This document shows, piece by piece, positions 1,071-43,566 of a stretch of 64,000 nt of DNA. Both the position numbers and the translations under genes were made by a program. A model generated the notes under the pieces. That model was not told where the DNA came from. It saw only the letters and a program-made list of their open reading frames with translations, and ran no database searches. This DNA is from Verrucomicrobiaceae bacterium (GTDB lineage: Bacteria > Verrucomicrobiota > Verrucomicrobiia > Verrucomicrobiales > Verrucomicrobiaceae): positions 62,001 through 126,000 of the forward strand of contig CANGYJ010000002.1 of the NCBI GenBank assembly GCA_947458455.1, given 5' to 3'. The stretch's first letter is position 1, and the number at the start of each line of letters is the position of its first letter.

Positions 1071-3824
1071 TCACACGCTGAAGGCATCCTCAACGAGTTT
1101 GTCTTGCTCAAGCGAGTGAATGGCCTTGGAGCCTGCGGCGGGGCTGGAGGAGCGTTCGCGGCCGGCGTAGCGGAGCTTGTGATTGCTCAGTTCTTCAAGG
1201 CGGGGGCGGATGTAATAGAAGGCACCCATGTTGCGGGGCTCTTCCTGGCACCAGATCCACTTCTTCTGCGCTCGCGGATACTTGGCGACGATCTCTTTGA
1301 GCATCTCGTAGTTCAGCGGGTAAAGCTGCTCGACGCGGATGATGGCGGCGTTCTTGATCTTGTGCTCTTCGCGGAACTCCAGAAGGTCGTAATAGACTTT
1401 GCCGCTGCACAAAATGAGACGCGTGACGCGCTCCGGCGCGACGGTGAGGTGCTCGTCGTCGAGCACTTCCTTGAAGGTGGTGCCTTCGGCCATGTCGGCG
1501 AGCTTGCTGACGCACTTCGGATGACGCAGCAGGCTCTTCGGCGTCATGACGACGAGGGGCTTGCGGGTGCTGCGCTTGAGCTGGCGGCGCAGGGCGTGGA
1601 AATACTGCGCAGGCGTGGTGAAATTGCACACCTGCATGTTGCCACCGGCGCAGAGCTGCAGGAAGCGCTCCATGCGAGCGCTGGAGTGCTCGGGGCCCTG
1701 ACCTTCGTAACCATGCGGCAATAGCAGCGTCACATGCGAGGGGCGCTGCCACTTGCTTTCGGCGGAGGCGATGAACTGGTCGATGATGACCTGCGCACCG
1801 TTCACGAAGTCGCCAAACTGCGCTTCCCAGCAGACGAGCAGGTTGCTGGCGAGCAGCGAGTAGCCGTAGTCGAAGCCCAAGACGGCGGCCTCGGAGAGGA
1901 GCGAGTTGTACACGCAGTAGCGACCTTGCTCGGCTTGCAAATTGTTCAGGGGGATGTGGCGATCACGCGTCTGCGAATCATAAAACACGCTGTGACGATG
2001 GCTGAAGGTGCCGCGACGCACGTCCTGGCCGCTGAGGCGGACGCCGTGGCCTTCGGTGAGCAGGGTGCCAAAAGCCAGCGACTCGGCGTAAGCCCAATCA
2101 AAGCCTTCGCCAGCTTCCACAGCCTTCTTGCGAGCGGCGAGGAAGCGTTTCGCGATGGTGGGATGCAGATTGAAGCTCTCCGGCACTTCGAGCAGGCGCT
2201 CGGCCACGATTTTGAGCTTCTTCGCTTCCACGCCGGTTTTCACCGGGGTGTAGTCATAGGCAGGCTGCGGCATGGCCATGCTGCCTTCGAATGGATTGCC
2301 GCCATTGGCGCTCTTGTCCTTCTCGGCGAGCGTGGTGACGCCGGCTTCGAGTTCGTCATCGAGCTCGCGTTGCAACGCGGCGGCACCCGCTTCGTCGAGC
2401 AGGCCCTGGCTGGCGAGATCGAGACGGAAGAGCGTCGCGGTGGACGGATGCTGCGCGATGCTGCGGGCCATGTTCGGCTGCGTGAAGCCGGGCTCGTCGG
2501 TTTCGTTGTGACCGTGACGGCGGTAGCAAACGATGTCGATGATGACATCGCGGCCAAAGGTCTGGCGGAACTCCAGAGCGAGCTTCGCAGCGCGGACGAC
2601 CTCCATCGGGCAATCGCCATTCACATGGAAGACGGGCGCTTCGATCATCTTCGCCACGTCGGTGCAGTAGTGGGACGAACGGGCGTCCTCCGGCATCGTG
2701 GTGAAGCCGATCTGGTTGTTCACGATGAGGTGGATCGTGCCGCCGGTGCGGTAACCGGGAAGCTGCGAGAGATTCAACACCTCAGCGACGAGACCCTGGC
2801 CAGCGAAAGCCGCGTCACCATGAATGAGCACCGGGATGACTTTCTTGCGGTCCTTTGTATCGCCCAGCGCACGCTGACGGGCTCGCGCCATGCCTTCCAC
2901 CACGGGATCGACGGCTTCCAGGTGGCTCGGATTCGGAGCGAGCATCACGCCGACGGAATCACCGCCGCTGGTCTGGCGCACGGTTTCAAAGCCGAGGTGA
3001 TATTTCACATCGCCATCACCGCTGACCATGTTCGGCACGTAGTTCTCGCTGAACTCGTAAAAGAGATACTCCAGCGGCTTGCGCAGGAAATTCGCCAACA
3101 CACTGAGGCGGCCACGGTGGGCCATGCCGAGCACGATTTCTTTGCCGCCGTAGGCTGGCATGCCTTCGAGCACGGTCTCCAGCGCCACGAGCAAGGACTC
3201 GCCACCTTCCACGGAGAAACGCTTCTGCCCCACGAAACGACGATGCAGGAAGCGTTCGAACGACTCCGCCTCCAGCAGCCAGCGCAGTGCATCCACCTGC
3301 TCCTTCGCGGCTGGTTTCGGTGCTTCGGTCACCTCGACGCGGTCCAGCAGCCAAGCGCGGACTTCGGGGTTGTTGATATGCCAGAACTCAAAGCCGGTCT
3401 TGCCACAATAAATACGGCGTAGTTCGCCGAGCATCGTTTTGAGCTTCATCGGCTGACCGCCGCGGAACAAGTGCGTCTGCACGTCTTCTTCGAGTTCGTC
3501 ATCCGTGAAGCCAAGGCCCGCGAGTGAGAGCGAGGCGATGTCCGGCCCCTGGGCGCTGAGCGGATCGAGATGCGCGGCGGTATGACCGAGAGCGCGGAAG
3601 TGATGGATCGCGTTCGTCACGCGCATGCGGAAGCTCAGCGTCTTTTCAGAGAGCGTGCCCTCGGTTCCTTTCGCAGGTTGTGCGGCCAGTTTGGCCATGC
3701 CGAGTTCGAAACCTTCAAAGAATGACGACCACAGTGGTTCGACGGAGGCAGGGTCTTTTTTCCAGTCGGTGTATTTCGACTCAAGGAAGTCCGCGTTGGC
3801 GCGGTAGGGGAGTGAGGCACTCAT
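1071..3824 (-). CDS. sucA: 2-oxoglutarate dehydrogenase E1 component
   Basis: Thiamine-diphosphate-dependent E1 subunit (917 aa, usual length 900-950) that decarboxylates 2-oxoglutarate and succinylates the E2 lipoyl group in the TCA cycle. The N-terminus, MSASLPYRANADFLESKYTD, resembles the short E2-binding segment of bacterial SucA. The ThDP/Mg region lies around residues 335-375, with GDAAFAGQG followed by NNQIGFTT. AHRGRLSVLANF and LAPNPSHLEAVDPVVEG are family hallmarks. The C-terminal transketolase-like pyrimidine domain includes HGYEGQGPEHSSARMERFLQ. The gene starts at an ATG at 3824, and about 210 bp separate it from the divergent cytochrome c gene, so a promoter is expected there. sucB follows downstream. 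Confidence 0.97.
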   Translation of the reverse strand: MSASLPYRANADFLESKYTDWKKDPASVEPLWSSFFEGFELGMAKLAAQPAKGTEGTLSEKTLSFRMRVTNAIHHFRALGHTAAHLDPLSAQGPDIASLSLAGLGFTDDELEEDVQTHLFRGGQPMKLKTMLGELRRIYCGKTGFEFWHINNPEVRAWLLDRVEVTEAPKPAAKEQVDALRWLLEAESFERFLHRRFVGQKRFSVEGGESLLVALETVLEGMPAYGGKEIVLGMAHRGRLSVLANFLRKPLEYLFYEFSENYVPNMVSGDGDVKYHLGFETVRQTSGGDSVGVMLAPNPSHLEAVDPVVEGMARARQRALGDTKDRKKVIPVLIHGDAAFAGQGLVAEVLNLSQLPGYRTGGTIHLIVNNQIGFTTMPEDARSSHYCTDVAKMIEAPVFHVNGDCPMEVVRAAKLALEFRQTFGRDVIIDIVCYRRHGHNETDEPGFTQPNMARSIAQHPSTATLFRLDLASQGLLDEAGAAALQRELDDELEAGVTTLAEKDKSANGGNPFEGSMAMPQPAYDYTPVKTGVEAKKLKIVAERLLEVPESFNLHPTIAKRFLAARKKAVEAGEGFDWAYAESLAFGTLLTEGHGVRLSGQDVRRGTFSHRHSVFYDSQTRDRHIPLNNLQAEQGRYCVYNSLLSEAAVLGFDYGYSLLASNLLVCWEAQFGDFVNGAQVIIDQFIASAESKWQRPSHVTLLLPHGYEGQGPEHSSARMERFLQLCAGGNMQVCNFTTPAQYFHALRRQLKRSTRKPLVVMTPKSLLRHPKCVSKLADMAEGTTFKEVLDDEHLTVAPERVTRLILCSGKVYYDLLEFREEHKIKNAAIIRVEQLYPLNYEMLKEIVAKYPRAQKKWIWCQEEPRNMGAFYYIRPRLEELSNHKLRYAGRERSSSPAAGSKAIHSLEQDKLVEDAFSV

Positions 3825-33398: not shown

Positions 33399-36300
33399 AT
33401 GAAAAAACCCTCGCTCATCGCCCTCGCGGCGCTGCTGGCCCTGCCATGCGCTGCCGCGGAGAAAAAAGCTGCCGCCAAGCCCGCGCCCAAGTCCGCTCTG
33501 GAACTCCACAAATGGTCTGGCGATCTCAACGTGCCTGATCCCGTGGCCGTCACGACGGATGAAAAGGGCCGCGTCTATGTCGCCGCCACCACACGGCGCA
33601 AAGTGGCCGATCTCGACATCCGCGAGCACTCGATGTGGATCGCCGATGACGTCTCATTGACCAGCGTGGAGGAAAAGGAAGCCTTCCTGAAACGCGAACT
33701 CGCTCCCGGCAAACTGCGCCTCCCACGCGGCGGACTCAAAGATCACAACAAAGACGGCTCCATCGACTGGAAGGACCTCACCGTGCACAGCGAGCGCATC
33801 TACCAGCTCCGCGATACCGATGGCGACGGCACCGCCGACCAGATGACGACCTTCGCCGAGGGCTTCAACAGCGTCGTCACCGGCATCGCGGCGGGCATTT
33901 TGTATCATGACGGCTGGGTTTACGTCACCGTCGCACCGGATCTCGTGCGCCTGCGAGACACGAATGACGACGGCGTCGCCGATGAGCGTGAAGTCGTCGC
34001 GCATGGCTTTGGCATGCACATCGCGTATGCCGGGCATGACATGCACGGCCCGCGCATCGGGCCGGATGGCCGCATCTACTGGAGCATCGGCGACAAAGGC
34101 GTGAACGTGACGAGCAAGGAAGGCGTGAAGTGGTTTTACCCGCACGAAGGCTGCGTCCTGCGCTGCGAGCCGGACGGCAGCGGCTTCGAGGTCTTCGCGC
34201 ATGGCCTGCGCAACATCCAGGAGATCGCCTTCGACGACTTTGGCAATCTTTTCGGCGTGGACAACGACGCCGACCTCCCCGGCGAAAAAGAACGCCTCGT
34301 GTACATCACCGAGCGCAGCGACTCCGGCTGGCGCTGCGGCCATCAGTATCAAAAAGAGAAGAGCCGCTGGATGCTCGAAGGCCTGTGGAAGCCCGCGCAT
34401 GCCACGCAGCCGCTTTTCATCACCCCGCCGCTGCAAAACTACTCGAACGGCCCCGCTGGTTTCGCGCACGAGCCAGGCACCGCGCTCGGCGCTTCACTGC
34501 GCGGGCATTTCATCCTCGATCAATTCCCCAGCGGCGTCATGACGGCGTTTCAGCTCGCTCCGAGCGGCGCTTCGTTCGTCATGAAAAACGAACGCGTTAT
34601 CCACACCGGCCTCATGGGCATCGGCATGGCCTTCGCCAACAACGGCGGCCTCTTCATCGCCGATTGGGTCGGCGGCTATCCGCTCGATGAACTCGGCCAC
34701 ATCTGGCTCGCCGACGATCCCACCGGCCAAAACAGCCCCGAGCGTCAAGAGACCGCCAAACTCCTCGCCAATCCTCATCAGACGAATCCGTCTCATCTGT
34801 CGCATGCGGACCAACGCGTCCGTTTGCAGGCTCAATTCGCCTTGGTGAAAAACGGGGACTTCAAAACCCTCGAAGCTATCGCCAGCGACAAGAAAGCCGC
34901 TCAACTCGCCCGCATCCACGCCATCTGGGGCCTCGGCCAAGGTCTCCGCGCCAAGAAGATCGAAGCCGCCACATTAACCAAACTCCTCACCGACTCCGAT
35001 CCCGAAATCCTCACCCAAACCGCCAAAGTCCTCGGCGACGGCACCACTCGCGATCCCGCACTCATCTCACTTCTCACTTCGAACATCTCACGAGTCCGTT
35101 TCCACACCGCCATCGCCCTCGGCAAACTCCAAGACCCCGCCGCCACGCCCAAACTGCTCCAACTCGCCGCGAAGGAGCAAAACGATCCCTTCATGCGCCA
35201 CGCCATCGTCACCGGCCTCGCGGGCTGCGCCGATGCCAAGGTGCTCGTGAAGGACAAAAGCCTCTGCAACCTCCTCGCCCTCGCCCGGCAGCGCTTGCCA
35301 AAGGTCGCCGAGTTTCTCACCAAATTCCCCGACGAAGCCGAGCGCGCCATTCACGACGACGCCGGCATCCCGGAGGCTCTTCCCGCCCTCACCACGCGAC
35401 ACTCGCGTCGAGGGCTGAATGCCTGTTTGCGCCTCGGCATCGCCGAACCGCTCATCCAGGCCGCTTTGAAGCCCTCCGCACTGCAAAGCGAGGCGCTCGA
35501 CCTCCTGCTCGTCTTCACCCATCCGCCGCGCCTCGACCGCATCGATGGCCACGCGCATGAAAACGCCCCGCGCGATGCCAAAGCCTTCGCCGCGCTCGTC
35601 CAGTCGCGTCTCGACTCGCTGCTCGACCTCACCGACGGCCAGCTCAAAGCCAAAGCCGTCGAGTTGCTCATGCAGCTCCAGCTTCGCGTCGAGCCCGCCG
35701 TGCTCCAGGGCATCGTCGCCGATGCGAAAGCCCGCAGCAGCCTCCGCGCCGGTGCCTTGAAGATGCTCGCCAGCACCGGCGACTTCGGACCTTCGCTCGA
35801 TCTCGCCTTGGATAAAAAATCCCCCGCCGAACTCCGCCGCGAAGCCCTCAAGCAGCTCTTCGCCCATCAGCCCGACCGCGCCATCGCCGCTGCCGCCACC
35901 GCGTTGAAGGAAGCCGATACCACCACCAAGCAACTCGCCCTCTCGCTGCTCGCCGCCTCCAAAGACGACAGCGTCATCACCGAATGGCTCGACCTCCTCG
36001 CGCAAAACAAAGCCCCCGCTGCCATCCAGCTCGACATCCTCGAAGCCGCCGCCACCCGCGAAAGCCTCAAACCCAAGCTCGCCACCCTCCAAACTCAAAA
36101 CACCGAACTCCTCGAAGGCGGCGATGTCACTCGCGGTCGCGACCTCGTCACCAATCACCTCGGTGCCAACTGCATCGCCTGCCACACCGTCGAGGCCAAA
36201 GAAGGCAGCCAGGTCGGCCCGAATTTGAAAACCATCGGCAGCACCAAAGATCGAAAATACCTCCTCGAATCCCTTTTGAACCCGCTCGCCGTCGTCGCCC

Positions 36301-36548
36301 CCGGTTATGGCCTCGTTTCCATCACCCTCAAGAACGGCAAAAGCCTCTCCGGTGCCCTCGACAAAGAAGACGCCACCCAAATCATCCTCCGCTCCCCCGA
36401 CGGCAAAACGCAAAAGGTTCCCCGCGCACAAATCGCCACCTCCACCCCACCCATCAGCGTCATGCCCCCCATGCTCGGCATCCTCACCAAAACGGAGATC
36501 CGCGATGTGGTGGCTTACTTGGCGAGCTTGAAGGCGAAGAAGAAGTGA
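33399..36548 (+). CDS. PVC-type membrane-bound dehydrogenase/cytochrome c protein
   Basis: Secreted 1049-aa protein of the type found in Planctomycetes and Verrucomicrobia. The signal peptide is MKKPSLIALAALLALPCAAA. It contains a beta-propeller dehydrogenase-like domain (about 40-430, VPDPVAVTTDEKGRVYVAAT and GHDMHGPRIGPDGRIYWSIG), a HEAT-like helical repeat region (about 450-900), and a C-terminal cytochrome c domain with CIACH near residue 926. The tail PPISVMPPMLGILTKTEIRD is typical. The likely role is periplasmic sugar or alcohol oxidation, but the substrate is unknown. A short repeat appears to be inserted in frame at 34777-34822, and its 3' end is duplicated 1.8 kb downstream. Confidence 0.9.
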   Translation: MKKPSLIALAALLALPCAAAEKKAAAKPAPKSALELHKWSGDLNVPDPVAVTTDEKGRVYVAATTRRKVADLDIREHSMWIADDVSLTSVEEKEAFLKRELAPGKLRLPRGGLKDHNKDGSIDWKDLTVHSERIYQLRDTDGDGTADQMTTFAEGFNSVVTGIAAGILYHDGWVYVTVAPDLVRLRDTNDDGVADEREVVAHGFGMHIAYAGHDMHGPRIGPDGRIYWSIGDKGVNVTSKEGVKWFYPHEGCVLRCEPDGSGFEVFAHGLRNIQEIAFDDFGNLFGVDNDADLPGEKERLVYITERSDSGWRCGHQYQKEKSRWMLEGLWKPAHATQPLFITPPLQNYSNGPAGFAHEPGTALGASLRGHFILDQFPSGVMTAFQLAPSGASFVMKNERVIHTGLMGIGMAFANNGGLFIADWVGGYPLDELGHIWLADDPTGQNSPERQETAKLLANPHQTNPSHLSHADQRVRLQAQFALVKNGDFKTLEAIASDKKAAQLARIHAIWGLGQGLRAKKIEAATLTKLLTDSDPEILTQTAKVLGDGTTRDPALISLLTSNISRVRFHTAIALGKLQDPAATPKLLQLAAKEQNDPFMRHAIVTGLAGCADAKVLVKDKSLCNLLALARQRLPKVAEFLTKFPDEAERAIHDDAGIPEALPALTTRHSRRGLNACLRLGIAEPLIQAALKPSALQSEALDLLLVFTHPPRLDRIDGHAHENAPRDAKAFAALVQSRLDSLLDLTDGQLKAKAVELLMQLQLRVEPAVLQGIVADAKARSSLRAGALKMLASTGDFGPSLDLALDKKSPAELRREALKQLFAHQPDRAIAAAATALKEADTTTKQLALSLLAASKDDSVITEWLDLLAQNKAPAAIQLDILEAAATRESLKPKLATLQTQNTELLEGGDVTRGRDLVTNHLGANCIACHTVEAKEGSQVGPNLKTIGSTKDRKYLLESLLNPLAVVAPGYGLVSITLKNGKSLSGALDKEDATQIILRSPDGKTQKVPRAQIATSTPPISVMPPMLGILTKTEIRDVVAYLASLKAKKK
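34777..34822. repeat. GGACGAGTC-family repeat inside coding sequence
   Basis: CATCAGACGAATCCGTCTC followed by ATCTGTCGCATGCGG resembles the repeats at 10929-10973 and 38349-38395. It encodes NPHQTNPSHLSHA between LLA and DQRVRLQAQF, where related proteins run on without the insert (family memory). The insert keeps the frame. Confidence 0.45.
36446..36544. repeat. Direct repeat, copy 1 (3' end of the PVC cytochrome gene)
   Basis: These 99 bases encode the last 33 or so residues of the upstream gene. They reappear at 38243-38340 with about ten substitutions and one missing C. The two copies flank the DUF1963-parDE segment. Confidence 0.9.
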
Positions 36549-36619
36549 GGTCTCACACCCAAGTATCGTCTGACAAATGCTTTCAACTATCGACTCCCGC
36601 CTCCTTCATGCTTCACTGC

Positions 36620-37537
36620 TTAGCAGGTTTCAAGCATGGTGTGGGACTTATCGAAATCGCGACTCGCAATGTCATCCTGTCCTATCATCACGGAGTAAGA
36701 TCCAGCGTCCCAAATATTGAAACCAACACGGAAGTTAGAATCAATCCAAAGAATCTGGCACCATTGAGACATCGCCTCTTGGACTTGGTGGTAAGAAATC
36801 GAGTATTTTTCTCTGGCTTTGGACAGTCGATCCCAAACATCATGGCCGAGTTCTGCTAGCGGAGCGGACTCGGACGAGTCCAATGACAAAAGGGCTATTT
36901 CCTCGCGAATTGAATGTTCTCCTGGTTGAAAACCAAAGAGTTTGCCAGCGACGACCTCTCTTTCAGACGTTCCTCTCAGCTGGGCTTCAAACTGTGTCAT
37001 CAATTCAACGGCATCATCTTTGCTGTCTATTTCCAGTTTACCTGGAAACCCCCATATGGGTACATCCACTCCATAAATGATCTCGATGGAGTGGGGAATA
37101 AGTTCTCCACTTCGCACATAATCTGGACTCATCTCTGCCAAAGGCGGCTGCATGGTTCGTTGAAGCTTCGAAGAATCGGCAGTCCAGATGAGCTTGTGTT
37201 CCACGTTCTTCGCGAGTTCGTCGTCACCCACGAAAAAGTAGAGCATGCCTTGACGCGGCATGCCAAAGGGCAGCGCCACATCTATATCATCCAGTCGAAT
37301 CTGCATGATGAACGATAGCGCCCCGCATTGTCCCCGGGGCCAAGGAGTGTCATTGGGCAGGTCTGGCAGGCCGCCCATCTTGCTGCGCCCAAGAGCTTGC
37401 TCTCCCTTTTGTATTACATGGAGATACCAGCATTCAGTCGCTTCTCGGCGGATAGCTTTGCGATCTGCCTCCGTGAATTTGCATCGCTCCAGAGCGCTTT
37501 CGAGATGATGGGCTAAGTGGTTGGGTAGCGAAGTCAT
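36620..37537 (-). CDS. DUF1963 (YwqG-like) family protein
   Basis: 305-aa soluble protein. The family signature SKMGGLPDLPNDTPWPR (about residues 52-68) is followed by LSFIMQIRLDDID and GMLYFFVGDDE, as in YwqG-like proteins. The C-terminal part has QVQEAMSQWCQILWIDSNF. The biochemical role is unknown. Its base composition is visibly lower in GC than the neighbouring PVC gene, and it lies within a segment bounded by direct repeats, so acquisition by transfer is plausible. Confidence 0.82.
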   Translation of the reverse strand: MTSLPNHLAHHLESALERCKFTEADRKAIRREATECWYLHVIQKGEQALGRSKMGGLPDLPNDTPWPRGQCGALSFIMQIRLDDIDVALPFGMPRQGMLYFFVGDDELAKNVEHKLIWTADSSKLQRTMQPPLAEMSPDYVRSGELIPHSIEIIYGVDVPIWGFPGKLEIDSKDDAVELMTQFEAQLRGTSEREVVAGKLFGFQPGEHSIREEIALLSLDSSESAPLAELGHDVWDRLSKAREKYSISYHQVQEAMSQWCQILWIDSNFRVGFNIWDAGSYSVMIGQDDIASRDFDKSHTMLETC

Positions 37538-37632
37538 AGCGGCGAAGTCTAAAACTAAAGAATATCGAGTCGATGGATTATCGATTGGAAACGGCTTCAG
37601 GCTGCATCGGCTTTACCGTCATTGATAAAATT

Positions 37633-37926
37633 CTACTCAAGCTCCCTGACCGCATCTCTTGCACCGTGGAGGATTCGGATGATTTCCAAGGGATCGCTTC
37701 TCTTGAACACAATCAGGTAGTTTTTCCTGACGGTGTGAAACCAAAGGTCATGCTTGGTCAGGTCTTTCCTGCGGTGACCGAGGTCCGGCATCTCCGACAA
37801 CGTCGTGATCTCGTCACGAATGTCCTGCTCCAACCTATCAGCGGCCTCAGGATGATGGTCAGCCACATAGATCCAAATGTCTTGCAGGTCGTATTGAGCC
37901 GCACGGCTGAACAGGACGGTTTTCAC
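37633..37926 (-). CDS. parE: ParE/RelE-type toxin
   Basis: 97-aa protein with the RelE/ParE fold pattern: VLFSRAAQYDLQDIWIYVAD at the start, then the long helix EQDIRDEITTLSEMPDLGHR, and the C-terminal strands NYLIVFKRSDP and IIRILHGARD. ParE toxins poison DNA gyrase, while RelE toxins cleave mRNA. Pairing with a ParD-like antitoxin favours ParE. It overlaps its antitoxin gene by 4 bp, so the two are translationally coupled. Confidence 0.87.
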   Translation of the reverse strand: MKTVLFSRAAQYDLQDIWIYVADHHPEAADRLEQDIRDEITTLSEMPDLGHRRKDLTKHDLWFHTVRKNYLIVFKRSDPLEIIRILHGARDAVRELE

Positions 37927-38174
37927 GCCTTGGCACGCCAGTTCGCCTTGAATGCCTCCATGTCTGCTATGGACTGCTCACTCGTCAGGAAGCGGCCTTC
38001 GGCCATATCCTGAAGCCCTTCGTCAATCTTGGCTGTCACCGCCATCTTCCAGCGTTCTTGCTGTCGCATGAGCCCCAAAGACTCCACCACGACTTCATCG
38101 GCGTCTTGATAGAGTCCGGTGGCAATTTTTTGCCGCACAAAGGATTCGAAAACAGCGGGAAGCGTCACAGTCAT
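37923..38174 (-). CDS. parD: ParD-like antitoxin
   Basis: 83-aa ribbon-helix-helix-type antitoxin. The N-terminal strand and helix (MTVTLPAVFESFVRQKIATG) and the helix YQDADEVVVESLGLMRQQE are the DNA-binding part. The C-terminal portion binds the toxin. It precedes parE with a 4-bp overlap, as typical, and probably autoregulates the pair. Confidence 0.85.
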   Translation of the reverse strand: MTVTLPAVFESFVRQKIATGLYQDADEVVVESLGLMRQQERWKMAVTAKIDEGLQDMAEGRFLTSEQSIADMEAFKANWRAKA

Positions 38175-38242
38175 GAAGAAAGTCTGCCTTGCCGCCTGCC
38201 AACCGTCAACAAGTCAGTGCTAGGCGGTGGCTTGGCAAATCG

Positions 38243-38340
38243 CCCACCCATCAGCGTCATGCCCCCATACTCGGCATCCTCACCAAAACGGAGATCCGCG
38301 ATGCTGCGGCCTATCTGGCGAGTTTGAAGGCGAAGAAGAA
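38243..38340. repeat. Direct repeat, copy 2 (decayed 3' end of a PVC cytochrome gene)
   Basis: Repeats 36446-36544, with one C lost in a C run and several substitutions (GTGGTGGC changed to GCTGCGGC). It still reads LGILTKTEIRDAAAYLASLKAKK in one frame, but has no gene body and no stop at the equivalent place. It is either a duplicated gene end or the scar of a second gene copy. Confidence 0.9.
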
Positions 38341-38348
38341 CTCGACGG

Positions 38349-38395
38349 ATTGTCGGACGAGTCTGACTCGTCCGACCTGTCTGATCCTTCTGACC
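38349..38395. repeat. GGACGAGTC-family palindromic repeat
   Basis: TCGGACGAGTCTGACTCGTC is nearly self-complementary and is followed by CGACCTGTCTGATCCTTCTG. It lies directly after the decayed gene end, and resembles 10929-10973. Confidence 0.65.
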
Positions 38396-38411: not shown

Positions 38412-41400
38412 CTACGCTCTCCTCAAATCGAGCGTCATCGGGAACTCGGCCATGCCTTCGATCTTTTTCGGTTTCATCGGCCCGGGCGTGTGGCCGTAGG
38501 GGAAGAAGCGGGCGAGGCGGCGGCTTTCGGCTTCGTAGCTGTTCACGGGGAAGACGTCGTAGCTGCGGCCGCCGGGATTGGAGACGTGATGGGTGCAGCC
38601 TCCGATGCTGCGGCCGTTCCAGGTGTCCACGATGTCAAAGGTGAGCGGGGCATGCACGCCGATGGTGGGCTGCAAACATTCGCCGGGCTGCCAGGCACGG
38701 TAGCGCACGCCGGCGACGTGCTCGCCGACGGTGCCGGTGGGATGCAGCGGCACTTCGATGCCGTTGCAGGTGATGATGTAGCGCCCGCTGACGAGGCCCT
38801 TCGTTTTGAGCTGCACGCGTTCGAGGCTGCTATCCACAAAGCGCACGGTGCTGCCAGCGCTGCCTTCCTCACCGAGGACGTTCCAGGGCTCCAAAGCGGT
38901 GCGCACCTCCAGATTCACGCCGCGCTGGGTGATGTGGCCGATGGCGGGGAATTTGAACTCGAAGTGCGGTGCAAACCACTCGGCCTTCAAATCGTAGCCG
39001 TAGCTCTGCATATCGGCCATGACGTCGGTGAGGTCATCCCAGACGAAATGCGGCAGCAGGTAGCGATCATGCAGCTCAGTGCCCCAGCGCACGAGTTTTT
39101 GCTCATACGGCTGGTCCCAGAAGCGAGCGATGGCGGCACGCAGCAGCAGATGCTGCGCGAGGCTCATCTCCGCATGCGGCGGCATTTCAAAGGAGCGCAG
39201 CTCGACGAGTCCGAGGCGTCCGGTGGCGTTGCCGGGATCAAAGAGCTTGTCGATGCTGAATTCGGTGCGGTGCGTGTTGCCGGAGGCATCGCAGAGCAGA
39301 TTGCGGAAAATGCGATCGACGAGCCACGGTGGCGTGTGGCCGTTGCGGGCGGTGTGGCGGTTCAATTCCTCGAACGCGAGCTCCAGCTCGAAGAGCGCAT
39401 CATTGCGCGCTTCATCGACACGCGGATGCTGGCTGGTGGGGCCGATGAAGAGGCCCGCGAAGAGGTAGCTGAGGCTCGGATGATTATGCCAGTAGCCGAG
39501 CAGGGACTTCAGCAGGTCAGGCCGCCGCAGCAGGGGCGAGTCCTTCGGCTGCGCACCGCCAAAGACGATGTGATTGCCGCCGCCGGTGCCGGTGTGGCGG
39601 CCGTCGATCATGAATTTCTCCGTGCCGAGGCGGGTGAGCCGCGCTTCTTCGTAGAGCGTCTTCGTGTTGCTCACGAGTTCGTTCCAGGTCGTCACGGGAT
39701 GCATGTTCACCTCGATCACGCCGGGATCAGGCGTGACCTTGATCACGTTCACGCGTGGATCATACGGCGGCGGTGTGCCTTCGATCATGACGGGCATTTT
39801 CAAAGCCGCCGCAACGTCTTCCACCGCCGCGACGAGATCGAGGTAGTCCTCGATCTTCTCCACCGGCGGCATGAAGACATGCAGGCGGCCACCACGCGGC
39901 TCCAGACACACGGCGGTGCGGATCACCGACGCGGCGGACTCCTGCGGCTGCGGGAAACGCTCGGGCGAGTTCGCTGGCAAGGGCTCCAATTTCACCCGCT
40001 CCGGCTTGCCCTGGCCTGCGTGGATGCCTTGGCCATAGCTGGATGGCAGGGGCATGTCCTCCAGCCAATCCGCCACGGCACCGAGGAAGTGCTGACGGCT
40101 CTCGGGACGCGGCGGCAGATCCGGCCAGTCGTTCAGTGGATCGGCGGGATAGATCCACGGGTAATCTTTGGCGCTGACCCATGGCAGGCTGTCGAGCGGC
40201 AGGCGCAGGCCCATGGGCGAATCACCGGGGATCAGATACATCGTGTCATCTCGCACAAACCACGGGCCGCTCTGCCAGCGCAGTTCTCTGCCCTGCTCGG
40301 TGCGTTGCAGCGGCAGGGCGAAGCCGGTGATCTTGTTCAGCCCTTCTTCAAAGATGCGGGCCAGTCGCTTACGCTCGTATTCATCCTTCAGGTTCGACTT
40401 CAGCGGATCGACGTTCACCGGCAGACGCTTCTCTTTCCAAAGGTAGTAGAAAGCATCTTCGTAGCCGGGTTTCAGCCACTTGGGATCCACTCCCAGCGCG
40501 GCGCTCAGCGCCATGCCAAAGCGATACGCTTCATTCTCGCTGTGGCCGTAGTTCTTCGATTCATCACCGATGAGGGAATCATCACGCCACATGGGCACGC
40601 CGTCCTTGCGCCAGTAGCAGCCCAGCGCCCAGCGTGGCAGTTGCTCGCCGGGATACCACTTGCCCTGGCCGAAGTGCAGCAGCCCGCCGGGGCCAAACTG
40701 CTTTCGCAGGCGCTTCACCAGCACATGGGAAAGCTCCCGCTTCTTCGGACCCACGGCCGCCGTGTTCCACTCCGCGCCTTCCATGTCGTCGATGGATACA
40801 AACGTCGGCTCGCCGCCCATCGTCAGGCGCACATCGCGTTGGATGAGATCCTCGTCGATGCGGTGGCCTAGCGTTTCGATCTCCGCCCATTGCTCCGGCG
40901 TGTAAGGCTTCGTCACACGAGCGGATTCAAAGATGCGCGTCACGCTCATCTCATGCTCGAATTCCACCTCGCACAGCTCCAGCCCGCCGGTGATCGGCGC
41001 GGCGCTGGTGGGGTCCGGCGTCGCCGCCAGCGGCAGATGGCCTTCACCCGCCAGCAGTCCTGAGGTGGGATCGAGGCCCACCCAGCCCGCGCCGGGCAGA
41101 TACACCTCACACCAGGCATGAAGGTCAGTGAAATCCACCTCGGTGCCGCTCGGGCCGTCCAGGGACTTCACATCTGGCTTGAGCTGGATCAAATAACCGC
41201 TCACAAAACGCGATGCGATGCCCATGTGCCGCATGATTTGGCACATCAGCCACGCCGAGTCACGACACGAGCCGCTGCCCAGTTCCAGCGTCTCCTCCGG
41301 CGCCTGCACCCCCGGCTCCATGCGGATCAGATAGCTCACATCTTCGCACAGCATCTGGTTGATCATCACCATGAAGTCATTCGTGTGCATCGGCTCCTTC

Positions 41401-41822
41401 AGCCCGTGCAGCTTTTGCCGGATCTCGCGCAGGTACTCGCCCAGCAGCGGCGTCAGCGGCAGCTTGCGATGATACGGCTCCAGCTCATGCACCAGCACCG
41501 GATCGTATTTGAAAGGCACCCGCTCCGCCTGCGGCTCCAGAAAGAAGCCAAACGGATTGTACACCGACATGTCCGCCACCACATCCACTTCGATGCTCAG
41601 CTCCGTCGTCTTTTCCGGGAAAACCAGCCGCGCCAGGTAGTTCCCCTGCGGGTCCTGCTGCCAATTGATGAAATGCTCCTCCGGCGTGACCTTCAGCGAG
41701 TAGCTCAAAACAGGCGTGCGGCAGTGCGGAGCTGGTCGCAGCCTGACCACTTGCGGCCCCAGCGAAATGGGGCGGTCATATTTGTACTTGGTGACGTGAC
41801 GGAGAGCGACGTGGATGGACAT
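38412..41822 (-). CDS. Transglutaminase-like/DUF2126 family protein
   Basis: Large cytoplasmic protein of 1136 aa from the ATG at 41822 (MSIHVALRHVTKYKYDRP). An upstream in-frame extension would overlap the divergent gene. The N-terminal domain (about 1-290) is a bacterial transglutaminase-like module with candidate catalytic residues Cys in GSGSCRDSAWL, His in DLHAWCEVYL and Asp in LDPTSGL. The rest is a DUF2126 region (QRDVRLTMGGEPTFVSIDDM, GTGGGNHIVFGG). In other bacteria such genes cluster with alpha-E and circularly permuted ATP-grasp genes, but none is seen next to it. No signal peptide. Confidence 0.88.
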   Translation of the reverse strand: MSIHVALRHVTKYKYDRPISLGPQVVRLRPAPHCRTPVLSYSLKVTPEEHFINWQQDPQGNYLARLVFPEKTTELSIEVDVVADMSVYNPFGFFLEPQAERVPFKYDPVLVHELEPYHRKLPLTPLLGEYLREIRQKLHGLKEPMHTNDFMVMINQMLCEDVSYLIRMEPGVQAPEETLELGSGSCRDSAWLMCQIMRHMGIASRFVSGYLIQLKPDVKSLDGPSGTEVDFTDLHAWCEVYLPGAGWVGLDPTSGLLAGEGHLPLAATPDPTSAAPITGGLELCEVEFEHEMSVTRIFESARVTKPYTPEQWAEIETLGHRIDEDLIQRDVRLTMGGEPTFVSIDDMEGAEWNTAAVGPKKRELSHVLVKRLRKQFGPGGLLHFGQGKWYPGEQLPRWALGCYWRKDGVPMWRDDSLIGDESKNYGHSENEAYRFGMALSAALGVDPKWLKPGYEDAFYYLWKEKRLPVNVDPLKSNLKDEYERKRLARIFEEGLNKITGFALPLQRTEQGRELRWQSGPWFVRDDTMYLIPGDSPMGLRLPLDSLPWVSAKDYPWIYPADPLNDWPDLPPRPESRQHFLGAVADWLEDMPLPSSYGQGIHAGQGKPERVKLEPLPANSPERFPQPQESAASVIRTAVCLEPRGGRLHVFMPPVEKIEDYLDLVAAVEDVAAALKMPVMIEGTPPPYDPRVNVIKVTPDPGVIEVNMHPVTTWNELVSNTKTLYEEARLTRLGTEKFMIDGRHTGTGGGNHIVFGGAQPKDSPLLRRPDLLKSLLGYWHNHPSLSYLFAGLFIGPTSQHPRVDEARNDALFELELAFEELNRHTARNGHTPPWLVDRIFRNLLCDASGNTHRTEFSIDKLFDPGNATGRLGLVELRSFEMPPHAEMSLAQHLLLRAAIARFWDQPYEQKLVRWGTELHDRYLLPHFVWDDLTDVMADMQSYGYDLKAEWFAPHFEFKFPAIGHITQRGVNLEVRTALEPWNVLGEEGSAGSTVRFVDSSLERVQLKTKGLVSGRYIITCNGIEVPLHPTGTVGEHVAGVRYRAWQPGECLQPTIGVHAPLTFDIVDTWNGRSIGGCTHHVSNPGGRSYDVFPVNSYEAESRRLARFFPYGHTPGPMKPKKIEGMAEFPMTLDLRRA

Positions 41823-41917
41823 GGGCTGGTCCTGCAAACTAAAGCACAGCCCGTGCCAGCCGCCGGGGTACAGAGTGAAGGCTTGCCAGCCAAAACGGCG
41901 GAGATTATGATCCGCCC

Positions 41918-42580
41918 ATGCCATCCACGCCTTTGCTCGATCTCGCGGCACTTTTTGCCTCGCCGAGGCTGCCGGACATCGCGCAGGAAATCAATGAACG
42001 GCTGAGCCGGGAGACGGTGGCACGCCGCCAGTTTTACCACGACATGACCGACGACTGCAAAATGGAGTTCATCGGCGGCGAGGTCATCATGCACTCCCCC
42101 GCCAAGGCACGGCATGTGCGGGTGAAGGACAATCTGCTGCGCATGGTGCAAAGCTACGTCATCGCCCGCGACCTCGGCGAGGTCATGGACGAAAAGAGCC
42201 TCTGCGTCTTCCCGCGCAACGACTATGAGCCGGACATCGTCTTTTTCGGCCCCGAAAAAACCGCCGCCATCCAGCCGGACACGATGAAGTTCCCCATCCC
42301 CGATTTCGCCGTCGAGGTGCTCTCCGAAAGAACCGAGGCTCGTGATCGCGGCGTGAAATTCCAGGACTACGAGGCGCACGGCGTCCGTGAATACTGGATC
42401 ATCGATGCCGAGGAGGAATGGGTGGAGCAATACATCGAGAAAGACGGCCGCTACGAGCTGCGTCTGAAATCCGGTAGCGGTGAGATCGCGAGCAGCGTCA
42501 TCGCAGGCTTTCGCGTGCCGGTGCGGGCCATCTTTGACGCCAAAGAAAGCCTTCGCGTGATGCAGACCCTGCTGGAGTGA
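41918..42580 (+). CDS. Uma2 family (DUF820) PD-(D/E)XK-like endonuclease
   Basis: 220-aa protein. The restriction-like core is visible as MEFIGGEVIMHSP, Asp in YEPDIVFF, Glu in DFAVEVLSE, then VKFQDYEAHGVREYWIIDAE. Uma2 proteins are abundant in cyanobacteria and PVC bacteria; their role is unknown and some appear to be transposon-linked. It is divergent from the transglutaminase-like gene, with 95 bp between starts. Confidence 0.88.
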   Translation: MPSTPLLDLAALFASPRLPDIAQEINERLSRETVARRQFYHDMTDDCKMEFIGGEVIMHSPAKARHVRVKDNLLRMVQSYVIARDLGEVMDEKSLCVFPRNDYEPDIVFFGPEKTAAIQPDTMKFPIPDFAVEVLSERTEARDRGVKFQDYEAHGVREYWIIDAEEEWVEQYIEKDGRYELRLKSGSGEIASSVIAGFRVPVRAIFDAKESLRVMQTLLE

Positions 42581-43260: not shown

Positions 43261-43262
43261 GG

Positions 43263-43490
43263 CGAGCCGGAGGCTCGTGAGAACCTAGCCGGTGGTGAAA
43301 CCACCGGAAACGATGCCTCAACCTCCACGCTTGGGTGTTCGCGCCCCGGAGGGAGCGCGAGAAGCCACCGGAGTCCTGTGACTCCTCGCATCCTTCTCGC
43401 GCTCCCTCCGGGACGCGAAACCTTTGCCTAGACACACGCCAAGTTCCGGGGGCTTCACCCCCGGCTACCCTCTTTCGAGCCTCCGGCTTG
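43263..43490. repeat. Nested composite palindrome (REP-like)
   Basis: Left half: hairpin CGAGCCGGAGGCTCG (43263-43277), hairpin CCGGTGGTGAAACCACCGG (43289-43307), then a 25-bp arm (43340-43364, GCGCCCCGGAGGGAGCGCGA core). Right half, in reverse order: the complementary arm (43393-43417), hairpin CCGGGGGCTTCACCCCCGG (43446-43464), and CGAGCCTCCGGCTTG (43476-43490). The order of parts is mirror-symmetric. The gap 43261-43566 holds nothing else visible. Confidence 0.88.
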
Positions 43491-43566
43491 CCAAGACACG
43501 CACGCAACGTGCTCGCGTGACATCTTGACCTCACCACCGCCCCACGGCAGCATGCGCGGCACTTTC

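What the first reader, a model, noticed from the sequence alone, without database searches (positions are those of the whole stretch)
36446..38340. DUF1963-parDE segment bounded by direct copies of a gene 3' end
The last 99 bp of the PVC cytochrome gene recur 1.8 kb away with about ten changes and one lost C. Between them lie a DUF1963 gene and a ParDE pair of lower GC content. This looks like insertion that duplicated the gene end, or a deleted second copy. A TA module could stabilise it.
Basis: partly seen in the sequence, partly recalled or inferred. Interest (0 to 1): 0.6.

Follow-up and report, generated by a model that had tools for sequence, protein, structure and literature searches.

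The report
ParDE cassette in cytochrome gene end
A small toxin-antitoxin cassette lies between two copies of the tail of a bacterial cytochrome gene; a distant relative carries a closely similar pair at the same gene with its old gene tail pushed aside, which points to insertion by recombination rather than to a special mobile element.

Summary
The last ~100 bp of the PVC-type cytochrome gene (36446-36544) recur at 38242-38340 (90 of 99 columns identical: 8 substitutions, one lost C), enclosing a low-GC DUF1963 gene and a parDE pair, all on the minus strand in the order parD-parE-DUF1963. Copy 2 is no intact paralog, and the segment is rare. The telling comparison is Prosthecobacter MAG VE4 (G011): at the orthologous gene it carries parDE (93% DNA identity), a different cargo gene (DUF6193) and a second gene end. 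There a tract near the gene's 3' end is of a foreign allele (90-98% to G016/G029, after 63-78%), while the outer copy is nearest to members of G011's own clade and runs into that clade's downstream DNA. So a new gene end came in with the cassette and the old one was displaced. I read the window the same way with less confidence: its flanks (cytochrome, amidoligase) are adjacent in none of 20 relatives examined, so no empty site is known and a rearrangement is also involved. No integrase was found. Most likely mechanism: recombination anchored in the gene end, with a non-homologous or short-homology right junction. The kind is known; this is a readable new member.

The parts
33399..36548 (+). 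PVC-type cytochrome c gene (Piru_Ver_Nterm / HEAT_2 / CxxCH domain), intact, host gene of the insertion
   Evidence: TIGR02604 E 2.9e-40, TIGR02603 E 1.6e-29; orthologs at 93-94% in G016, G067
36446..36544 (+). copy 1 of the repeated gene end (in gene, coding)
36620..37537 (-). cargo gene, DUF1963
   Evidence: PF09234 E 2.8e-18; strong match only in the own genome among 32 searched
37633..37926 (-). ParE toxin
   Evidence: PF05016 E 7.1e-14; 92-93% aa to G011
37923..38174 (-). ParD antitoxin
   Evidence: PF03693 E 7.1e-5, above its cut-off; TIGR02606 E 1.8e-13
38235..38340 (+). copy 2: displaced, frame-shifted remnant of a PVC cytochrome gene end, without stop codon
38353..38375 (.). palindromic short dispersed repeat directly right of copy 2
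38412..41951 (-). transglutaminase/amidoligase (DUF2126) gene, right flank; divergent from the copies in the nearest relatives
   Evidence: PF09899; 78-79% to G067/G016/G014, while G067 is 95-96% to G016 and G014

Best explanation
The segment is a small, integrase-free cassette. Its genes run parD-parE-cargo on one strand, and it has been placed in the 3' end of a PVC cytochrome gene by recombination. Incoming DNA paired with the resident gene through the homologous gene end, so the gene kept a complete 3' end. The right-hand end of the incoming piece joined inside the last ~100 bp of the resident gene, by illegitimate recombination or through a short homologous stretch. That left the old gene tail stranded on the far side as copy 2. 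Shown by sequence in G011: foreign tract at the gene's 3' end, cassette, then the native-type end and native-type downstream DNA. Inferred for the window: the same kind of event, from the same architecture, the same gene and a 93% identical parDE. Inferred and untested: the TA pair penalises loss by recombination between the two direct repeats, and DUF1963 and DUF6193 are passengers downstream of parDE.
For: G011 has parDE at 93% DNA identity over 587 bp, in the same orientation, at the orthologous gene, followed at once by a second gene end. Identity of the G011 gene to G016/G029 is 63-78% over alignment columns 1400-3199 and 90-98% over columns 3200-3599 (200-column windows). In 60-column windows of the C-terminal alignment G029 matches 56, 58, 60 and 59 of 60, where G026, G032, G004 and G068 match 36-50. 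G011's outer copy is nearest to G026 (68/86), G004 (66/86) and G068 (64/84), against 60/89 to its own inner copy, and it runs on into DNA 84% identical to G026 for 1.6 kb. The inner copy reads KTEIRD like G016, G029 and G014, the outer copy PQIRD like G026, G004 and G032 (sequences). The site takes inserts often: 5 of the 16 genomes that keep this downstream block have 0.66-2.3 kb extra there (21 genomes examined). No integrase or transposase: the family hits in the two inserts are DUF1963, DUF6193, ParE and ParD, and seven overlapping ORFs had none. Copy 2 of the window resembles copy 1 in its first part (66/69), but in its tail G014 and G011 (34/40 each) more than copy 1 (31/40). No PVC-end hit in any of 7 other parDE stretches.
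Against: For the window no empty site is known: in none of 20 relatives is the amidoligase in the stretch downstream of the cytochrome gene, so the segment also marks a rearrangement breakpoint. In G067 parDE (82%) sits beside the amidoligase without any PVC end, so parDE reached that neighbourhood independently. Most of the window's in-gene end looks native: G067 shares 36258-36419 exactly, although the last ~33 bp are nearer to G016 (97%) than to G067 (88%). The tail of copy 2 has no close match (none with up to 3 mismatches in the other 47 genus genomes). Overall copy 2 is as close to G011's gene end as to copy 1 (97/109 each). In G011 five members of its own clade (G031, G002, G028, G012, G001; 64-67%) are no closer to the outer copy than the other clade is (65-70%), the last ~140 columns do not separate the alleles, G033 also resembles the foreign allele (49-56 of 60), and the 5' part of the gene is mosaic too (75-94% to G016/G029). 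In the E. coli study read, HFIR predicted deletions and the duplications were put down to single crossover of circles. G011 and the three other named records are MAGs, the rest carry no names here; an assembly chimera is unlikely but not excluded.
Confidence: 0.55

Rival explanations
1. Site-specific integration at the gene 3' end, as integrative elements do at tRNA 3' ends: the element carries a copy of the gene end as its attachment site, and an integrase acts in trans or has been lost.
For: Direct repeats of the gene end bound the insert in two genomes, at the same gene, in the same orientation, with the gene restored.
Against: No integrase found in either insert. The foreign tract in G011 covers a few hundred bp, not a fixed core. 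The start of the outer copy differs by about 20-40 bp between the two genomes. Other inserts at the site have unrelated contents.
Confidence: 0.15
2. The arrangement in the window is a by-product of a chromosomal rearrangement: a break at the cytochrome gene end was joined to an existing parDE-amidoligase locus like that of G067, and the gene end was duplicated at the breakpoint.
For: G067 has parDE beside the amidoligase 3' end. In the window's genome the amidoligase is about 52 kb from the ATP-grasp gene that neighbours it in G067 and G014. A palindromic repeat lies at the junction.
Against: The window's parDE is closer to G011 (93%) than to G067 (82%) although G067 is the nearer relative at the cytochrome gene. 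The G011 locus shows the same architecture without the amidoligase. The window's amidoligase is a divergent copy.
Confidence: 0.2
3. Remains of a tandem second cytochrome gene, most of which was deleted or replaced by the cassette.
For: Of the 7 changes in the tail of copy 2, 4 are synonymous and 3 make two valine-to-alanine changes, as if it came from a working gene (read from the alignment).
Against: No second PVC end in the downstream stretch of 19 of 20 relatives, and only the displaced end in G011 (upstream sides not searched, and the listing is truncated). In G011 the outer copy continues into its clade's downstream DNA.
Confidence: 0.07

Closest known systems
Insertion with long target duplication of restriction-modification genes in Helicobacter pylori (Nobusato et al. 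2000; not read, seen only as described in passages of PMC1643837 and in the reference list of PMC2654758)
   Same: Addiction-type gene pair bounded by long direct copies of target DNA.
   Different: Here the pair is parDE with variable cargo. In the clear case the two copies are different alleles, so the end was replaced and displaced, not copied.
Homology-facilitated illegitimate recombination (HFIR; PMC3240628, passages), and its proposed role in displaced genes of Vibrio T6SS arrays (PMC5361080, passages)
   Same: One end joins by homology, the other without; an older gene or gene part stays behind downstream.
   Different: The host gene is a cytochrome that stays intact; no effector or immunity gene is exchanged. 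Competence of these bacteria was not tested.
Single crossover of a circularised fragment giving 109-950 bp duplications (PMC3240628, passages)
   Same: Yields direct duplications of a gene end around an insert.
   Different: Predicts an outer copy as long as the exchanged stretch; in G011 the exchanged stretch reaches back some 0.3 kb but the outer copy is only about 88 bp.
Integrative elements at gene 3' ends (recalled, general knowledge)
   Same: Gene end restored by the incoming copy, old end displaced.
   Different: No integrase found and no fixed core seen.

Membership tests
Type II parDE toxin-antitoxin module | ParE-family toxin and ParD-type antitoxin, antitoxin first, overlapping or adjacent | tested here: met
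   PF05016, PF03693, TIGR02606 above cut-off; ORFs overlap by 4 bp
Type II parDE toxin-antitoxin module | toxin activity neutralised by antitoxin | not testable with these tools
   needs an expression assay
Insertion with long target duplication | insert bounded by long direct copies of target DNA | tested here: met
Insertion with long target duplication | relative with single-copy empty site | tested here: inconclusive
   met for G011 (11 of 16 block-bearing genomes have no insert); not found for the window's own pair of flanks
Insertion with long target duplication | both copies derive from the one target | tested here: not met
   in G011 the copies are different alleles, 60/89 identical
Homology-facilitated illegitimate recombination | one side joined by homologous exchange | tested here: met
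   foreign tract of a few hundred bp at the left side in G011
Homology-facilitated illegitimate recombination | other side joined without long homology | tested here: inconclusive
   donor molecule unknown; it may itself have carried an outer gene end
Homology-facilitated illegitimate recombination | uptake of linear DNA (competence or conjugation) | not tested
   competence genes were not searched
Site-specific integrative element | integrase encoded in the element | tested here: not met
   Pfam hits only DUF1963, DUF6193, ParE, ParD; seven overlapping ORFs without hits
Site-specific integrative element | identical attachment core at both ends | tested here: inconclusive
   first 59 aligned bases nearly identical in the window; in G011 the copies are 67-77% alike depending on the alignment

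The most novel reading that the evidence does not exclude
A family of integrase-free parD-parE-cargo cassettes in Prosthecobacter-like bacteria uses the conserved 3' end of a PVC cytochrome gene as a landing pad. Each carries its own replacement gene end, exchanges cargo (DUF1963, DUF6193) downstream of parDE, and spreads between lineages by homologous recombination while the toxin guards against loss through the flanking direct repeats.
Probability: 0.15. Interest if true: 0.6.

Novelty: new member of a known kind. Interest (0 to 1): 0.33.

Why it matters
It gives an example, with foreign-type and native-type alleles both recognisable in G011, of how a toxin-antitoxin pair can enter a chromosome without a mobile-element enzyme of its own and without breaking the gene it lands in. 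It also shows that a zero-gap pair of convergent genes can be an insertion hot spot. The mechanism is not new in kind, so the interest is moderate.

Tried and rejected
An early reading that the window's in-gene 3' end was imported (note) was dropped when G067, the nearest relative at this gene, turned out to share most of it. What remains is that two alleles of a tract of about 185 bp (about 36258-36442) exist among the near relatives, with at least 28 consecutive informative sites of the G067 type in the window.

A donor for the tail of copy 2 was sought by pattern in 48 genus genomes; only the window's own genome matched. The 3' flanks of the amidoligase were looked at in 8 relatives, and parDE, the PVC end and DUF1963 were searched in the amidoligase loci of 19 relatives, most with 1.5 kb of flank: only G067 has parDE there and none has a PVC end. 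The 20-kb neighbourhood of the ATP-grasp gene in the window's genome holds no parDE, DUF1963 or PVC-end remnant. DUF1963 in plasmid records: no match. PADLOC models for the cassette proteins and the G011 cargo: none. Promoter and terminator scans gave no more than shuffles. Literature: Prosthecobacter with toxin-antitoxin gave 6 papers, none on this locus by title or start of abstract; a five-term search returned none; one search was not useful.

Weaknesses of my scripts: the stop-codon finder picked a wrong frame in several genomes (e.g. G026, G004, G015, G014, G067), shifting offsets by about 26 bp, which does not affect inserts of 0.66-2.3 kb; one search covers 21 of 48 genus genomes. The script printed its results and then stopped with an index error. 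In one search the G011 alignment is padded by loose scoring. Locus L150 (G057) was fetched and not examined. The contexts of the weak DUF1963 hits in G001 and G004 were not examined.
Full report
What is there. The gene 33399-36548 codes for a PVC-type cytochrome (TIGR02604, TIGR02603, HEAT repeats). Its last ~100 bp, 36446-36544, recur at 38242-38340 with 90 of 99 columns identical. Copy 2 has lost one C and the stop codon, so it is a non-coding remnant. A short further match on its left, with about 10 bp missing, takes the homology back to about 36427. Between the copies lie, all on the minus strand, parD 37923-38174, parE 37633-37926 and a DUF1963 gene 36620-37537. In transcription order the cargo follows parDE, 95 bp after the parE stop. 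GC is 0.49-0.57 here and mostly 0.59-0.67 around.

The copies are not evenly diverged. Seven of the eight substitutions lie in the last 39 columns (p = 0.006 for a split chosen after looking). The first part of copy 2 is nearest to copy 1 (66/69). The tail is nearer to G014 and to the in-gene end of G011 (34/40 each) than to copy 1 (31/40). Over the whole length copy 2 is as close to G011 as to copy 1 (97/109 each). Of the seven tail changes four are synonymous and three make two valine-to-alanine changes, as expected of an end that came from a working gene of another allele.

Spread. In 48 genus genomes, parDE matches of about 180 bp or more were found in 10: the own genome, G011 at 93%, G067 at 82%, the other seven at 66-75%. 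Two sit at this cytochrome gene, the window's and G011's. Of 7 other parDE stretches fetched none gave a hit to the PVC end. DUF1963 was found in 3 of 32 genomes: the own one, and two at 31-38%. A scan of one genome per GTDB species with two short peptide patterns gave 4 ParE relatives.

G011 is the key. On L062 the order is cytochrome gene (stop ends at 1071), DUF6193 gene (1108-2136, minus), parE and parD (2172-2713, minus), then a second gene end (about 2762-2849), then the downstream DNA of its clade. parDE is 93% identical to the window's over 587 bp. The two cytochrome genes are 58-76% identical over alignment columns 1400-3199, but 80-92% in the first 1400 columns. Identity of the G011 gene to G016/G029 rises from 63-78% (columns 1400-3199) to 90-98% (columns 3200-3599). 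In 60-column windows G029 matches 56, 58, 60 and 59 of 60, where G026, G032, G004 and G068 match 36-50; G033 matches 49-56, so it resembles the foreign allele too. The last ~140 columns do not discriminate by overall identity, but the inner copy reads KTEIRD as in G016, G029 and G014, and the outer copy PQIRD as in G026, G004 and G032. The outer copy is nearest to G026, G004 and G068 (76-79%) and 67% to the inner copy. Five clade members (G031, G002, G028, G012, G001) are at 64-67%, no closer than the other clade. The outer copy runs straight on into DNA 84% identical to G026 for 1.6 kb. So a piece with a foreign gene end, cargo and parDE came in, and the resident end was displaced.

The site is prone to this. 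In G011's outer copy the cytochrome stop (2847-2849) abuts the stop of the convergent gene (2850) with no gap, and the same TGATCA is seen in G026, G004 and G032. Of 21 genomes examined, 16 keep the downstream block; 11 of these have no insert and 5 (G011, G015, G023, G030, G033) have 0.66-2.3 kb extra. Contents differ: a PIN-domain gene in G023, an esterase-like gene in G033, a gene with a weak secretin match in G030 and one of similar size in G015 (not scanned), the parDE cassette in G011. With no gap between the genes, an insert survives only if both gene ends stay whole. That by itself favours inserts that bring a spare gene end; this last point is inference.

The window is less clear. Most of its in-gene end looks native: G067, 94% at the cytochrome protein, shares 36258-36419 exactly, though the last ~33 bp are nearer to G016 (97%) than to G067 (88%). 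Among the near relatives two alleles of that tract exist, one in the window and G067, one in G016, G029 and G011. In none of 20 relatives does the stretch downstream of the cytochrome gene hold the amidoligase. G029 has a DUF748 gene there and G067 a similar one; G014 and G016 have other DNA. The amidoligase neighbours an ATP-grasp/alpha-E gene in G067 and G014, directly in G014, with parDE (82%) in between in G067, and with two other small ORFs in between in G029. In the window's genome that ATP-grasp gene is about 52 kb away, and the amidoligase is a divergent copy: 78-79% to G067, G016 and G014, while G067 is 95-96% to the other two. The gene at 43525 (prephenate-dehydratase-like by recall) is 90% to a G016 gene about 3.6 kb from G016's amidoligase. 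So the segment sits at a junction that also reflects rearrangement, and the order of events is open.

Mechanism. Best fit: recombination anchored by the gene end on the left and a right junction inside the last ~100 bp of the resident gene, as in homology-facilitated illegitimate recombination (PMC3240628 and PMC5361080, passages). In the first of these papers HFIR predicted deletions, and the duplications seen were put down to single crossover of circles. In G011 the resident gene would indeed have lost the stretch between the left exchange and the outer copy. A double homologous exchange with a donor that already had an outer gene end is an equally good description of later spread. A single crossover of a circle fits less well, because the foreign stretch in G011 is longer than the outer copy. 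Site-specific integration lacks an integrase and a constant core. A deleted tandem gene is not supported. Insertion with long target duplication was described for restriction-modification genes in H. pylori (Nobusato et al. 2000, known to me only through passages). The present case is a toxin-antitoxin counterpart, with the difference that in G011 the copies are different alleles.

Verdict. Real, explicable and of a known kind; a new member with an unusually readable history in G011. The claim that parDE guards the segment against loss through its direct repeats is plausible and untested.

Noticed in passing
window 38353-38375: A palindromic short repeat (arms around GACTCGTC) directly right of copy 2; similar stretches recur in the own genome and in relatives, and one lies at the equivalent place in G067.
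   Followed up: partly
3' end of the PVC cytochrome gene in G015, G023, G030, G033: Inserts of 0.66-2.3 kb at the junction of two convergent genes, with different contents (PIN-domain gene, esterase-like gene, gene with a weak secretin match).
   Followed up: partly
window 38412-41951 and own genome C2:45508-47988: The amidoligase gene is about 52 kb from its usual ATP-grasp/alpha-E neighbour and is a divergent copy (78-79% where near relatives share 93-96%).
   Followed up: partly
L143 4377-5186 (G067); L174 6297-7131 (G029): A second insertion-prone place, between the amidoligase and ATP-grasp genes: parDE in G067, two unrelated small ORFs (the second HNH-like by recall) in G029, empty in G014.
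   Followed up: partly
window 36258-36442: Two strongly different alleles of a tract inside the cytochrome domain occur among near relatives (162 bp exact to G067; 64-80% to G016/G029 in 75-bp windows).
   Followed up: partly
window 43261-43492 and 43338-43419: Inverted repeats (49-nt arms, 82% complementary; 27-nt arms, 96%) between a small ORF and the gene at 43525.
   Followed up: no
own genome, many places: One search lists dozens of short matches (about 30-60 bp) to two short parts of the G067 query, suggesting abundant short dispersed repeats.
   Followed up: no
L148 (G002 parDE locus): A ~216 bp repeat at 83-85% occurs on both sides of a more distant parDE pair.
   Followed up: no
   Followed up: no
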